NCBI GenBank assembly: GCA_021819245.1
Contig: JAKARI010000024.1
Coordinates: 1 to 37,207, forward strand
DNA: 37,207 bases
Source: Pseudomonadota bacterium
GTDB lineage: Bacteria > Pseudomonadota > Gammaproteobacteria > Acidiferrobacterales > Acidiferrobacteraceae
Direction: 5' to 3'
Positions 1 through 13,884 of this stretch are shown here, in pieces. A model generated the notes under the pieces. That model did not search any database, had not been told where the DNA came from, and was given only the letters and a program-made list of their open reading frames with translations. The number at the start of each line of letters is the position of its first letter. The first letter of the stretch is position 1. Position numbers and translations under genes: made by a program.

Positions 1-306
<306 letters not shown>

Positions 307-10865: not shown

Positions 10866-11303
10866 TTATCCCTTTCTTAATTCGAGCGGCTTGGGCTGCT
10901 GCGCCGCATGGCTGTGGGCGCTGCCTGCAAAAACCTTCAACTTGCGCAACATCTGGCGACCAAGAGGCCCCTTGGGCAACATACCGCGCACTGCCGCCTC
11001 GATCACCTCTTCGGGGGCGCGCGCCTTCATCTCGGTGAAGGTGTGCGTCTTCAACCCGCTCTGATACCCGGAATAGCTGTGATAGAGCTTGTGTTGGGCC
11101 TTGCGGCCGGTCACCTGAACCTTGTCCGCGTTCACCACGACAATGTAGTCGCCGGTATCAACATGCGGGGTGAATTCGGGCTTGTGTTTGCCGCGCAGCC
11201 GACGCGCGAGCTCGGTCGCCAGGCGACCCAACACATGATCCGTGGCGTCGACAACAAACCAGTCGCGCCTTACTGTCTCTGACTTCGCCGTGAAGGTCGT
11301 CAT
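10866..11303 (-). CDS. rplM: 50S ribosomal protein L13
   Basis: Early-assembly large-subunit protein. The 145-residue sequence carries family blocks [34 protein letters not shown], and the C-terminal [19 protein letters not shown](F/Y). First gene of the rplM-rpsI-tRNA-Gln unit. The ribosome-binding site before ATG 11303 is weak (GGAAAAGA). A strong promoter lies about 40-70 bases upstream. Confidence 0.98.
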
Positions 11304-11341
11304 GAAAATCTTTTCCGAGGCAAAAGAGTACGAAGCGCCGC

Positions 11342-11370
11342 ATGGTACGGGCGAGCGGCCGTGCTGTCAA
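11342..11370 (-). promoter_or_regulatory. rplM operon sigma-70 promoter
   Basis: Minus-strand perfect -35 TTGACA (11365-11370), 17-bp spacer, -10 TACCAT (11342-11347). The start point would lie about 35 bases before the rplM ATG. The -35 forms one arm of an inverted repeat (GTCAAC-N18-GTTGAC, 11366-11395) whose other arm is the -35 of a divergent promoter. Confidence 0.8.
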
Positions 11371-11390
11371 CGTTTTCCCCATAATAACAG

Positions 11391-11418
11391 TTGACCCTTG
11401 CGCGCGTTGTGGTATATA
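11391..11418 (+). promoter_or_regulatory. divergent promoter facing the small-RNA locus
   Basis: Plus-strand TTGACC (11391-11396), 16-bp spacer, TATATA (11413-11418). It is back-to-back with the rplM promoter, the two -35 boxes being 20 bp apart across an AT-rich stretch. A transcript starting near 11425 would cross the small-RNA candidate in antisense and end at the terminator near 11660. No convincing protein is encoded; the frames at 11478 (17 codons) and 11573 (31 codons) lack support. Confidence 0.5.
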
Positions 11419-11426
11419 GAGCGGAG

Positions 11427-11458
11427 AAAAAAAGAAGGCGTGGGGTAAACCACGCCTT
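11427..11458 (-). terminator. intrinsic terminator of the small-RNA candidate
   Basis: A 9-bp perfect stem AAGGCGTGG/CCACGCCTT (11435-11458) is followed on the minus strand by C and seven T (11427-11433). It has the poly-U only on the minus strand, so it serves a minus-strand transcript ending here, upstream of the rplM promoter. Confidence 0.88.
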
Positions 11459-11525
11459 GAACCACCACTAGGAGGATGGAGGAGCCGGTCGACAGTCGGG
11501 CCATGACCCGATCTGTAAAAAGCAT
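11427..11525 (-). ncRNA. candidate small regulatory RNA (about 99 nt)
   Basis: A free-standing transcription unit is visible on the minus strand: strong promoter (11532-11560), predicted start near 11525, and a strong intrinsic terminator with seven T. Inside are a 5' hairpin (TCGGGT-CATG-GCCCGA), then an unpaired pyrimidine-rich segment with CTCCTCC and ATCCTCCT, both complementary to Shine-Dalgarno sequences, then the terminator hairpin AAGGCGTGG-TTTACC-CCACGCCTT. A structured 5' end, exposed anti-Shine-Dalgarno motif and poly-U terminator is typical of trans-acting small RNAs. I recognise no known family. An alternative is a leaderless 52-residue hydrophobic reading frame starting at ATG 11525 and ending at 11367, but the terminator would cut its mRNA. 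Confidence 0.6.
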
Positions 11526-11531
11526 ATAATA

Positions 11532-11560
11532 ATTATCTAATATAATTTCCCTGCTGTCAA
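11532..11560 (-). promoter_or_regulatory. sigma-70 promoter of the small-RNA candidate
   Basis: Minus-strand TTGACA (11555-11560), exactly 17 bp, then GATAAT (11532-11537), one mismatch from consensus overall, in an AT-rich patch that stands out in this GC-rich DNA. It lies downstream of the ferredoxin terminator, so it should drive an independent transcript. Confidence 0.8.
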
Positions 11561-11629
11561 GGGCCTCTTCCGATGGACCCCACTCCCGAGGAAGAAGGAC
11601 AGATATTCTGGCTCTGTAAGACCATGAAA

Positions 11630-11664
11630 AGGGGAGACTGGTTCCCGGTCTCCCCTCTTTTTTC
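11630..11664. terminator. bidirectional intrinsic terminator after the ferredoxin gene
   Basis: Stem GGGGAGACTGG / CCGGTCTCCCC (one G-T pair, loop TTC, 11631-11655). On the plus strand it is followed by TCTTTTTTC, on the minus strand by TTTTC. It immediately abuts the ferredoxin stop (11663) and can end both that minus-strand transcript and any plus-strand transcript from the 11391 promoter. Confidence 0.85.
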
Positions 11665-11977
11665 ATGAGTCGTCGAGGCGCAGACGCGCGACGGGCCGCC
11701 CGCCGACAATATGCTGCTCTAGGATCTCGTCTATATCCTCGCGGTCCACGTAGGTGTACCAGATACCCTCCGGATAGACGACAAGGACCGGCCCCTCCTC
11801 GCAACGGTCCATGCAGCCGGCGGTATTGATGCGCACACCGCCCGGGCCGGCAAGGCCCAGCGCCTTGATCCGCTGTTTGGCATAATCGCGCAAGGCGCGC
11901 GCGTCCTGCTGCTGGCAACACCGCCGCCCGTCGGTGCGTTCATTCGTGCAAAAAAAGACGTGTTGTCTATAGTACAA
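11663..11977 (-). CDS. thioredoxin-like [2Fe-2S] ferredoxin
   Basis: Small electron carrier of the thioredoxin-fold [2Fe-2S] type (like Clostridium/Aquifex ferredoxin and NuoE). In the 104 residues the cysteine pattern is Cys10, Cys20 or Cys21, Cys55 and Cys59: HVFFCTNERTDGRRCC, then NTAGCMDRCEEGPV. The only start that leaves the first cysteine motif intact is TTG at 11977, with GGGGG four bases upstream; an in-frame stop occurs 30 bases earlier. The redox partner is unknown. The start codon is only 9 bp from the divergent Fe-S gene start, so its promoter must lie within that gene or overlap it. Confidence 0.87.
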   Translation of the reverse strand: MYYRQHVFFCTNERTDGRRCCQQQDARALRDYAKQRIKALGLAGPGGVRINTAGCMDRCEEGPVLVVYPEGIWYTYVDREDIDEILEQHIVGGRPVARLRLDDS

Positions 11978-11986
11978 GAGGCCCCC

Positions 11987-13237
11987 ATGCCGCTTTTCGA
12001 TTGCTCAAACCCAGGTGACGGCGCGCCATCGGCCCTCGCCGCTGCCATACACGACGCGAGCGACCGCTGCGTGGCGTGCGGCCTGTGCCTACCGCACTGC
12101 CCCACCTATCGGGACAGTCTAAACGAAAACGAGTCCCCGCGCGGGCGCATCAGCCTGCTCGCCGCCGCCGCCCGCGGTACCCTGCCAGTCACTTCCGCCT
12201 TGTCTACCCATATTGACCACTGTCTTGGCTGCCTGGCCTGTGAAAAGGTCTGCCCGAGCCATGTCCCCTATGGGGCGCTTCTCAGAAACGGCCGCGCCTG
12301 GCTTAACCAAAATCACCCCGGCACGTGGCGCCGCCGCTTGTATCGATCGCTGATCCGCGGGGTCGATGTGCCCGGGGCGATGGCGATGGCCTACGGTGTC
12401 GCGCGCCTCATCGGGTCGCTGCCGCCGGGGTCCCGGGCGGCGCGCACCGGCCTGGGCAGCGCCGTACACGGCCTGCCCGCGCGGCCGCGCCCGGCACTGG
12501 CCGATCCGGGGGATGGGAGGGTGGCCGATGTCGCGCTGTTTCGCGGTTGCACGGCCGATCTCGACCGTCCGGCATTGAACGCCGCGATCCGGATCCTGCG
12601 CGCGGCAGGCCAGCACGTCAGCATCCCGCGCGCTCAAGGTTGCTGCGGGGCGCTCGCCGCCCACGCGGGCTTCGCCGACATCGCCTGCCGCCAAAGGCTG
12701 CGTAACAACGAGGCCTTCGAGGCTGCGGCCCCGGCCCTCGTGTCGGTGGCCTCGGGCTGCGCCGCCGAATTGCGCCACGACCACCCCCGGCCGGGGGCCG
12801 GATTCCCCGCGGTCTACGACGTTCACCGCTATCTGGTGGAAAAGACCGACCTTGCGCGCCTCGCGCTTGCGCCGCTGCCGCGGACCCTCGCCGTACACGA
12901 CCCCTGCTCGCTCCGAAACGCCCTCGGGGGCGAGCGCTTCGTCTATGAGGTGCTGGCCCGCATTCCGGAGATACGGTTAGTCGAGCTGCCGGGCAACGCG
13001 GTGTGCTGTGGGGCCGCCGGCGACTATTTCCTGCGGGAACCGGCGCGCGCCCAGGCCCTCGCCCGCAGCAAGGCTGACGCCGCCCGCGAGGCCGGGGCTG
13101 ATATGGTGGTATCTGCCAATATCGGCTGCGCCCTGCATCTTTCGGCAGCCCTTGCCCGGCAAGGGTCGCCGATTCCCGTTCACCACCCGCTTTGGGTGGT
13201 GGCCCGACAACTCCCGCCGGCCCGTGACCCGTGCTAA
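11987..13237 (+). CDS. (Fe-S)-binding oxidoreductase subunit, GlcF/LutA type
   Basis: Electron-transfer subunit with two ferredoxin-type [4Fe-4S] motifs, CVACGLCLPHCP (Cys28, 31, 34, 38) and CLGCLACEKVCP (Cys79, 82, 85, 89), and two CCG domains (GCCGALAAHAG and VCCGAAGDYF) that in HdrB/GlcF relatives bind a further cluster. At 416 residues it matches the glycolate oxidase iron-sulfur subunit (about 407). The FAD subunits GlcD and GlcE are not adjacent, so the substrate is uncertain; lactate and heterodisulfide-type roles share the architecture. Start ATG 11987 is preferred (AGAGG five bases upstream); a GTG at 11960 is in frame but overlaps the divergent ferredoxin. Its stop overlaps the region just before coq7, suggesting co-transcription. 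Confidence 0.85.
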   Translation: MPLFDCSNPGDGAPSALAAAIHDASDRCVACGLCLPHCPTYRDSLNENESPRGRISLLAAAARGTLPVTSALSTHIDHCLGCLACEKVCPSHVPYGALLRNGRAWLNQNHPGTWRRRLYRSLIRGVDVPGAMAMAYGVARLIGSLPPGSRAARTGLGSAVHGLPARPRPALADPGDGRVADVALFRGCTADLDRPALNAAIRILRAAGQHVSIPRAQGCCGALAAHAGFADIACRQRLRNNEAFEAAAPALVSVASGCAAELRHDHPRPGAGFPAVYDVHRYLVEKTDLARLALAPLPRTLAVHDPCSLRNALGGERFVYEVLARIPEIRLVELPGNAVCCGAAGDYFLREPARAQALARSKADAAREAGADMVVSANIGCALHLSAALARQGSPIPVHHPLWVVARQLPPARDPC

Positions 13238-13248
13238 AGTCTCGGGTC

Positions 13249-13884
13249 ATGAGAACGTTCACCCGCATAGACCGGCTCATCGACCAGCTCGACCAGGGCC
13301 TCAAAGCCCTGCTCGTGCCACCCCCCGCGGACCCTTACCCCGAGACCGTGCCACACGAACAGGAGGGCCTGTCGCCCGAGGAACGCGCGCTGGGGGGGCG
13401 ACTTATGCGCGTCAATCATGCCGGCGAGGTCGCCGCACAGGCCCTGTACCAGGGACAGGCCTTATGGGCGCGCGATGCGCAGACGCATGATACCCTGCGC
13501 GCGGCCAGCCGTGACGAACGGCAACACCTCGACTGGACGGCCGCGCGCGTGAAGGAACTCAAAACCCACACAAGCTACCTCACGCCCGTCTGGTACCTGG
13601 GATCGTTCGCCATAGGGGCGGCCACCGCGCTGTTGGGAGACAAGGTGAGCCTAGGCTTTGTCGCAGAAACCGAGCGTCAGGTGATTGCACACCTGCAAGG
13701 CCATCTCGAAAGGCTCCCGGCCGCCGACCAAAGGACGCGCGCGATCATAGAGCACATGGCCGCCGATGAGGCCCGGCACGCGGCCGCGGCCGCCGACGCC
13801 GGAGGCCGTCCCTTGCCGAGGCCTGCCCAACTCGCCATGCGGCTTGCCGCGCGCGTCATGACCAAGACTGCGTTCTGGATTTAG
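13249..13884 (+). CDS. coq7: demethoxyubiquinone hydroxylase Coq7
   Basis: Di-iron monooxygenase that performs a late ring hydroxylation in ubiquinone synthesis at the membrane surface; it replaces UbiF in many Proteobacteria. The 211-residue protein has the ferritin-like ligand set: Glu60 (NHAGEVAAQ), Glu90 and His93 (RDERQH), Glu142 (ETERQV), Glu174 and His177 (DEARHA). The start ATG 13249 fits the family N-terminus; a GTG at 13231 would add six residues overlapping the upstream stop. It requires oxygen, so the host can use aerobic respiration. It follows the Fe-S gene by 11 bp and its stop codon overlaps that of the convergent VOC gene. Confidence 0.94.
   Translation: MRTFTRIDRLIDQLDQGLKALLVPPPADPYPETVPHEQEGLSPEERALGGRLMRVNHAGEVAAQALYQGQALWARDAQTHDTLRAASRDERQHLDWTAARVKELKTHTSYLTPVWYLGSFAIGAATALLGDKVSLGFVAETERQVIAHLQGHLERLPAADQRTRAIIEHMAADEARHAAAAADAGGRPLPRPAQLAMRLAARVMTKTAFWI

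What the first reader, a model, noticed from the sequence alone, without database searches (positions are those of the whole stretch)
11427..11560. Undescribed small RNA candidate with anti-Shine-Dalgarno motifs
A complete minus-strand transcription unit is visible with no credible protein: TTGACA-17-GATAAT, a predicted 99-nt RNA with a 5' hairpin, an unpaired CTCCTCC/ATCCTCCT segment complementary to ribosome-binding sites, and a 9-bp terminator stem followed by seven T. It lies between a ferredoxin terminator and the rplM promoter, so it cannot be leader or tail of either. This architecture resembles trans-acting CCUCC-motif RNAs, but I recognise no known family.
Basis: partly seen in the sequence, partly recalled or inferred. 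Interest (0 to 1): 0.72.

Follow-up and report, generated by a model that had tools for sequence, protein, structure and literature searches.

The report
Ancient ribosome-site-blocking small RNA beside rplM
A small-RNA gene lies beside a ribosomal-protein gene, and it appears to be the unrecognised gammaproteobacterial counterpart of a small RNA, known so far from betaproteobacteria, that blocks the ribosome-landing sites of messenger RNAs.

Summary
The minus strand at 11427-11560 carries TTGACA-17-GATAAT, a predicted 99-nt RNA and a strong terminator. Promoter, a 26-nt core (CTCCTCCATCCTCCTAGTGGTGGTTC) and terminator are conserved in the order Acidiferrobacterales.

"No known family" is half right. 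The RNA matches Rfam RF02278, "Betaproteobacteria toxic small RNA" (B. cenocepacia NcS27, B. pertussis S17), over the whole model but below its cut-off (30.6 against 50 bits). Related RNAs occur in 83 of 274 sampled GTDB Gammaproteobacteria. Of 90 such places, 54 lie just upstream of rplM-rpsI. Of 11 copies above the Rfam cut-off, 2 lie upstream of rplM, 5 beside coq7 (in reversed orientation, without rplM) and 4 near neither.

Most likely it is a trans-acting, Hfq-assisted RNA that pairs with ribosome-binding sites and lowers translation of metabolic genes; its targets are unknown. New here: the class-wide reach, the rplM linkage, opposite discriminators on the sRNA and rplM promoters (suggesting opposite stringent control), and, conserved in this bacterial family, an opposite-strand promoter starting at the RNA's 3' end.

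The parts
11532..11560 (-). sRNA promoter TTGACA-N17-GATAAT, followed by an AT-only discriminator (TATTATA)
   Evidence: promoter of 10-11/12 in 29 of 29 order loci scanned and 30 of 30; discriminator 0-1 G/C of 7 in 30 of 30
11427..11525 (-). Predicted 99-nt small RNA (start inferred 7 nt after the -10 box; end at the T tract)
   Evidence: z-score -3.96
11492..11516 (-). 5' hairpin, variable in sequence
   Evidence: A 5' stem is predicted in 15 of 15 family loci; pair support mixed: 68.7% of cells paired, covariation score above 500 of 500 shuffles, but number of both-side-changed pairs no better than shuffles
11459..11484 (-). Conserved core CTCCTCCATCCTCCTAGTGGTGGTTC with two anti-Shine-Dalgarno segments
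   Evidence: 44 of 57 order genomes with up to 3 mismatches; 35 named contigs in a collection of 84,980 species genomes
11462..11479 (-). Small hairpin CCAUC/GGUGG that presents CUCCUAGU in its loop; counterpart of hairpin 1 of RF02278
   Evidence: 99.7% of cells paired, but only one of five pairs varies as a pair (UG/UA/CG) among 58 sequences
11427..11458 (-). Intrinsic terminator, 9-bp stem (11435-11458) and T tract
   Evidence: 9 of 9 stem pairs show both-side changes across 58 sequences
11342..11370 (-). Separate rplM promoter TTGACA-N17-TACCAT with an all-G/C discriminator
   Evidence: 15 of 15 family loci, discriminator 7/7 G/C
11391..11418 (+). Candidate antisense promoter TTGACC-N16-TATATA with extended -10 (TGG), predicted start about 11425 at the 3' end of the sRNA
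   Evidence: spacing 16 in 12 of 15 family loci, 15 in L017, 18 in L018, not found by the pattern in L019; nothing in 12 of 14 loci of other families
10866..11303 (-). rplM (ribosomal protein L13), downstream neighbour
   Evidence: TIGR01066, 205 bits
11663..11977 (-). 2Fe-2S ferredoxin-like gene, upstream neighbour
   Evidence: below curated cut-offs; best NF041612, 72 bits of 150
13231..13884 (+). coq7, a neighbour shared with B. pertussis S17
   Evidence: NF033656, 260 bits; PMC11722255 passages

Best explanation
This is a trans-acting small RNA, orthologous to the betaproteobacterial RF02278 RNAs (NcS27, S17), in a gammaproteobacterial branch that Rfam's cut-off misses. It is made from its own sigma-70-type promoter and ends at its own terminator. 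Outside the window's family the transcript has a longer 5' leader, which may be cut off as RNase E does to S17. The core offers one single-stranded CUCCUCC and one CUCCU in a hairpin loop. With Hfq these pair with the Shine-Dalgarno region of mRNAs, block ribosome entry and lower translation of metabolic and transport genes when growth slows. Shown here: the signals of a transcription unit, their conservation, the terminator's covariation, the family relation by sequence, layout and (in part) synteny, and the presence of hfq and dksA. Inferred: transcription itself, processing, Hfq binding, targets and stringent control.
For: Full-length sub-threshold match to RF02278. A model built from 45 class sequences, without the window's order and without above-cut-off RF02278 copies (though these 45 were themselves found with RF02278), gives the window 50.0 bits, the next window hit being 14.1, and scores 11 above-cut-off RF02278 copies in 10 loci at 34.0-57.4 bits. 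Synteny: 54 of 90 class matches examined, 53 of 81 genomes, have rplM within 1 kb downstream on the same strand, median 162.5 nt; 39 of those 54 also have a ferredoxin, glcF-like or coq7 match on the other side. Above-cut-off copies just upstream of rplM-rpsI: G652 and G658. Papers, passages read: S17 lies beside coq7, is Hfq-dependent, RNase E-processed, and represses by pairing near the RBS (PMC11722255); NcS27 is a double-hairpin RNA predicted to cover RBSs (PMC5688073). hfq in 21 of 21 searched genomes including the own one.
Against: The Rfam gathering score is not met (30.6 against 50). PrrF RNAs reach 33.6-36.3 bits with the same model, overlapping the weakest RF02278 copies (34.0, 35.0, 36.3), so score alone does not separate them. 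Of 11 above-cut-off copies only 2 are beside rplM; 5 lie 0.6-0.75 kb from coq7, but with coq7 in the opposite orientation to 21 of 24 class rows and no rplM within about 10 kb; 4 have none of the tested genes near. Of 90 class matches, 36 lack rplM within 1 kb, some because the contig or stretch ends. Four of five core-hairpin pairs never vary. No RNA data. The only target search, for near-perfect complements in the own genome, found the locus itself and two 2-mismatch sites, against two for the reversed control pattern.
Confidence: 0.8

Rival explanations
1. A cis-acting leader or attenuator of the rplM-rpsI operon: the hairpins sense something and decide whether transcription goes on into rplM.
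For: Where rplM is found near a class match it is downstream on the same strand, 54 of 54 rows.
Against: Strong terminator and a separate conserved rplM promoter in 15 of 15 family loci. 22 of 76 core-like class matches lack rplM within 1 kb, although several of those stretches end early. Nine of 11 above-cut-off RF02278 copies have no rplM in the stretch examined, about 10 kb each way for five of them, and NcS27/S17 are reported as independent RNAs.
Confidence: 0.08
2. A convergent CU-rich small RNA (like PrrF or cuckoo-type RNAs) that is unrelated to RF02278 and resembles it only because both carry anti-Shine-Dalgarno motifs and a terminator.
For: PrrF scores 33.6-36.3 bits with model R2; score below Rfam's cut-off; coq7 orientation differs between the five family-f113 copies and most class rows.
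Against: Copies both above and below the cut-off lie just upstream of rplM-rpsI on the same strand, which convergence does not predict; the window scores 50.0 bits with R2.
Confidence: 0.08
3. A coding leader: the core reads ...S-S-I-L-L-V-V-V... in one frame, as in a branched-chain amino-acid attenuator.
For: The frame is open in the window (184-codon mechanical ORF 11367-11921).
Against: No frame with a start is kept among 30 loci; the nearest ATG falls in all three frames. Nearly every wobble base of the core is fixed, and the frame runs through the terminator.
Confidence: 0.02

Closest known systems
RF02278 Betaproteobacteria toxic small RNA (B. cenocepacia NcS03/NcS05/NcS27/NcS62; Herbaspirillum Hsnc59/63/86/107)
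   Same: CUCCUCCA start, second CU-rich segment in the loop of hairpin 1, terminator as hairpin 2, full-length alignment; two above-cut-off copies just upstream of rplM
   Different: Scores below the gathering score; hairpin-1 stem shorter and loop CUCCUAGU; one copy in each order genome with a core match, whereas four are reported for B. cenocepacia (PMC4603805 passages)
S17 of Bordetella pertussis (PMC11722255, abstract and passages read)
   Same: Near coq7; sigma-70-type promoter; conserved segment of two CU-rich sites followed by a terminator; precursor longer than the conserved part
   Different: S17L is 190 nt and S17S 67 nt; here about 99 nt in the window and an estimated 130-185 nt in the other families of the order; processing not tested
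NmsRA/NmsRB of Neisseria meningitidis (PMC5362039, abstract and passages read)
   Same: Two anti-Shine-Dalgarno motifs, metabolic targets, link to the stringent response
   Different: Tandem siblings, GC-rich discriminator in NmsRA, levels rise without relA; not compared by sequence here
PrrF (RF00444)
   Same: CUCCUC segment before a terminator; R2 score 33.6-36.3 bits at four loci
   Different: Rfam assigns three of these four loci to PrrF at 158-162 bits (the fourth, L207, was not scanned); none of the five tested neighbour genes within about 2.5 kb of any of the four

Membership tests
RF02278 Betaproteobacteria toxic small RNA | Score at or above the Rfam gathering score (50 bits) | tested here: not met
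   30.6 bits; 0 of 60 searched relatives reach it, best 40.7
RF02278 Betaproteobacteria toxic small RNA | Whole-model alignment with both CU-rich segments and both hairpins | tested here: met
   Model 1-64 of 64
RF02278 Betaproteobacteria toxic small RNA | Reverse test: a model made without the window's order and without above-cut-off RF02278 copies finds both the window and RF02278 copies | tested here: met
   Window 50.0 bits, next 14.1; 11 copies in 10 loci 34.0-57.4 bits, but PrrF 33.6-36.3, so the weakest copies are not separated from PrrF
RF02278 Betaproteobacteria toxic small RNA | Shared genomic place (rplM / coq7) | tested here: inconclusive
   rplM-linked like the window in 2 of 11 above-cut-off copies; 5 near coq7 in reversed orientation; 4 near neither; S17 reported beside coq7
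RF02278 Betaproteobacteria toxic small RNA | Occurrence in Betaproteobacteria | tested here: not met
   The window lies in Acidiferrobacterales (titles of the order's contigs)
RF02278 Betaproteobacteria toxic small RNA | Growth inhibition when overexpressed in E. coli | not testable with these tools
   Even for S17 the E. coli effect was weak (PMC11722255)
Hfq-dependent trans-acting sRNA | Intrinsic terminator with T tract, and hfq in the genome | tested here: met
Hfq-dependent trans-acting sRNA | Hfq binding and regulated mRNAs | not testable with these tools
   Needs RNA experiments
PrrF (RF00444) | Gathering score 90 bits | tested here: not met
   17.1 bits

The most novel reading that the evidence does not exclude
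The 'betaproteobacterial toxic sRNA' is an ancestral regulator of the whole GTDB class Gammaproteobacteria, originally fixed between coq7 and rplM-rpsI. It and the ribosomal-protein operon beside it form a growth switch with opposite ppGpp/DksA control (AT-only versus GC-only discriminator): when ribosome genes go off, the RNA that masks ribosome-binding sites comes on. In the window's bacterial family a convergent promoter starting at the RNA's 3' end makes a full-length antisense RNA that titrates it.
Probability: 0.2. Interest if true: 0.78.

Novelty: new variant of a known kind. Interest (0 to 1): 0.57.

Why it matters
RF02278 RNAs are described as currently found exclusively in Betaproteobacteria (PMC7011215 passages). 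If the orthology is right, this is a much older RNA kept beside a ribosomal-protein operon in many lineages of a large class, and missed by annotation because the Rfam cut-off is tuned to one branch. That would give a ready set of relatives for finding conserved targets and for asking why this RNA stays at rplM. The opposite discriminators make a link between ribosome synthesis and mRNA masking directly testable.

Tried and rejected
No E. coli match to 11300-11700. The exact class consensus (not the window's own core) is in no viral contig. A betaproteobacterial-type copy had no match in plasmids. Two attempts to find the 16S rRNA 3' end in 21 genomes found nothing, probably a limit of the held sequences, so a comparison with the true anti-Shine-Dalgarno tail was not made. 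Rejected: coding leader, rplM attenuator, PrrF membership.

Printed precedent: searches for the core letters, for rplM-upstream sRNAs, for Acidiferrobacter sRNAs (terms too broad to be useful) and for double-hairpin sRNAs in Gammaproteobacteria (listing seen) gave no paper describing it. Only open-licence PMC papers are held. The founding paper (Kimelman et al. 2012) was not held and the NcS27 paper (Sass et al. 2019) was seen only as cited in a review.

Bookkeeping: one search used 90 of the 93 matches listed (window's own, G004 and one G299 copy left out). In some searches the second G200 copy was read from the first copy's place by mistake, so G200 counts twice among the 54 rows. The split of the 90 into 76 core-like and 14 other was made by eye. 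Alignments A1 (58) and A3 (45) used sequences picked from these and, for A1, from the order.

Full report
What is there. On the minus strand, between a ferredoxin-like gene and rplM, lie TTGACA-17-GATAAT (11560-11532), a predicted 99-nt RNA (11525-11427) and a 9-bp terminator with a T tract. The RNA is more stable than 200 of 200 dinucleotide shuffles, z -3.96. The neighbours match L13 and S9 (rplM, rpsI) and COQ7 above curated cut-offs, and a 2Fe-2S ferredoxin and GlcF below them.

Conservation. BLAST with 421 bases found the locus in 12 of 13 genus relatives at 75-87% identity. In more distant families of the order only the core and terminator, and sometimes the promoter stretch, are left in the match. 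The 26-nt core occurs with at most 3 mismatches in 44 of 57 genomes of the order, 30 of 34 of the better ones, reversed control 0 of 57. It occurs exactly (one base degenerate) in 35 contigs of a collection of 84,980 species genomes, with titles Acidiferrobacteraceae, Acidiferrobacterales, Sulfuricaulis, Muproteobacteria, unclassified Gammaproteobacteria/Proteobacteria/Pseudomonadota, and one 'Nitrospira' bin. Among the 30 order loci read in detail, a promoter of 10-11 of 12 consensus letters precedes the core in 29 of 29 scanned. The predicted 5' part before the core is 41-46 nt in the window's family (15 loci) and 72-126 nt in the 15 others. No frame is kept through the core.

Relation to a known family. 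At Rfam's gathering scores the window gives only rRNA and tRNA. With relaxed thresholds the best match is RF02278 at 30.6 bits (cut-off 50), E about 1e-4, model 1-64 of 64. RF02278 at E <= 0.1 marks 47 of 60 relatives, none above the cut-off; at that loose threshold 5 of 14 control genomes ring too. At E <= 0.001 it marks 83 of 274 genomes of the class (67 of 221 genera), 2 above the cut-off, with 0 of 14 controls.

Place in the genome. I examined 90 of the 93 listed class matches. rplM lies within 1 kb downstream on the same strand in 54 rows (53 of 81 genomes; G200 counted twice), median distance 162.5 nt, and in no row in another arrangement. Of the 90, 76 have the CUCCUCCA-type core by eye and hold all 54; the 14 others hold none. 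Of the 22 core-like rows without rplM, 6 have ferredoxin, glcF-like or coq7 nearby and 16 neither, several in short stretches. 39 of the 54 rplM rows also have one of those three genes on the other side; L082, L083, L085 and L193 have coq7, sRNA, rplM and rpsI close together. Of 11 above-cut-off RF02278 copies, the two of family f194 (G652, G658) lie about 260-275 nt upstream of rplM on the same strand; the five of family f113 lie 588-754 nt from coq7; four copies in three other loci have none of the tested genes in the stretch. Widening to about 10 kb each way found no rplM at the five f113 copies, and their coq7 points the other way from that in 21 of 24 class rows with coq7. B. pertussis S17 is reported between a glycosyltransferase gene and coq7 (PMC11722255, passages). 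The rplM-linked above-cut-off copies are the main argument for orthology; the coq7 link is suggestive only.

Models and covariation. On 58 sequences the terminator stem has both-side changes in 9 of 9 pairs; the core hairpin is paired in 99.7% of cells but only one pair varies as a pair (UG, UA, CG), so covariation supports the terminator strongly and the core hairpin weakly (similar on 45 sequences). The 5' hairpin of the family has mixed support. Model R1 (includes the window's order) marks 153 of 369 class genomes and 28 of 299 in a phylum-wide draw at E <= 0.001; these are upper bounds, since PrrF RNAs are among the hits. Model R2, without the window's order and without above-cut-off RF02278 copies, gives the window 50.0 bits, next 14.1; eight order relatives 50.4-62.9, the 11 RF02278 copies 34.0-57.4, four PrrF-type loci 33.6-36.3.

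How it probably works. In the passages read, S17 is Hfq-dependent and cut by RNase E to 67 nt; 70 of the genes that rise without it have complementarity at or near their ribosome-binding sites, and one target was confirmed by compensatory changes. NcS27 overexpression attenuates growth and it is described as a regulator of metabolic shutdown on nutrient loss (PMC5688073 and the review PMC10987360, passages). The same kind of segments is conserved here; hfq is in 21 of 21 and dksA in 13 of 13 searched genomes. I therefore infer translational repression by ribosome-binding-site masking. Targets are unknown.

Possible control. The 7 bases after the -10 box of the sRNA promoter hold 0-1 G/C in 30 of 30 order loci, those after the rplM -10 box 7 of 7 G/C in 15 of 15 family loci (the rplM pattern was not found in the 15 other loci). 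AT-rich and GC-rich discriminators are typically activated and repressed, respectively, by ppGpp/DksA (statements in PMC5362039 and PMC6013443, passages). Opposite control is a prediction. Against easy generalisation, the Neisseria NmsR RNAs go up when relA is lost.

Antisense promoter. Downstream of the terminator the family keeps, on the other strand, TTGACC-16-TATATA, with a TG extension in L005-L016; the spacing is 16 in 12 of 15 loci while the spacer sequence changes, 15 in L017, 18 in L018, not found in L019 by the pattern. In a scan with looser rules (one point added for TG) all 15 family loci score 9-10 (shuffle p 0.000-0.020), while of the 14 other loci scanned 12 score nothing, L024 scores 8 (p 0.165) and L030 scores 10 (p 0.015). 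Its predicted start, about 11425, lies at the 3' end of the sRNA, so the product would be antisense to the whole RNA. This is untested and could equally serve something else.

Noticed in passing
window 11391-11418 (+): Promoter-like TTGACC-N16-TATATA (extended -10), conserved in the window's family, facing into the 3' end of the sRNA; would yield an antisense RNA.
   Followed up: partly
window 11630-11663 (+): Terminator-like hairpin with a T tract on the + strand in the ferredoxin-sRNA gap; with the promoter above it would bound an antisense unit of about 240 nt. Its T tract (A tract on the minus strand) is missing in L010-L013, where the hairpin persists with changed bases.
   Followed up: partly
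L140, L188, L223, L090: Two or three tandem matches in one locus (G232, G317, G338, G200), reminiscent of sibling sRNAs. The G317 copies lack the typical core.
   Followed up: no
L206, L207, L208, L222: PrrF-type loci score 33-36 bits with a model built from mostly rplM-linked RNAs; the shared CUCCUC plus terminator may be convergence or distant kinship (Rfam named L206, L208 and L222 PrrF; L207 was not scanned).
   Followed up: partly
L229-L233: In five family-f113 genomes the above-cut-off RF02278 copy lies near coq7 in the orientation opposite to most class loci and without rplM within about 10 kb; a rearrangement or a paralogue.
   Followed up: partly
window 1-306 (-): The contig end carries the 5' part of a 16S rRNA gene.
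   Followed up: no
   Followed up: no
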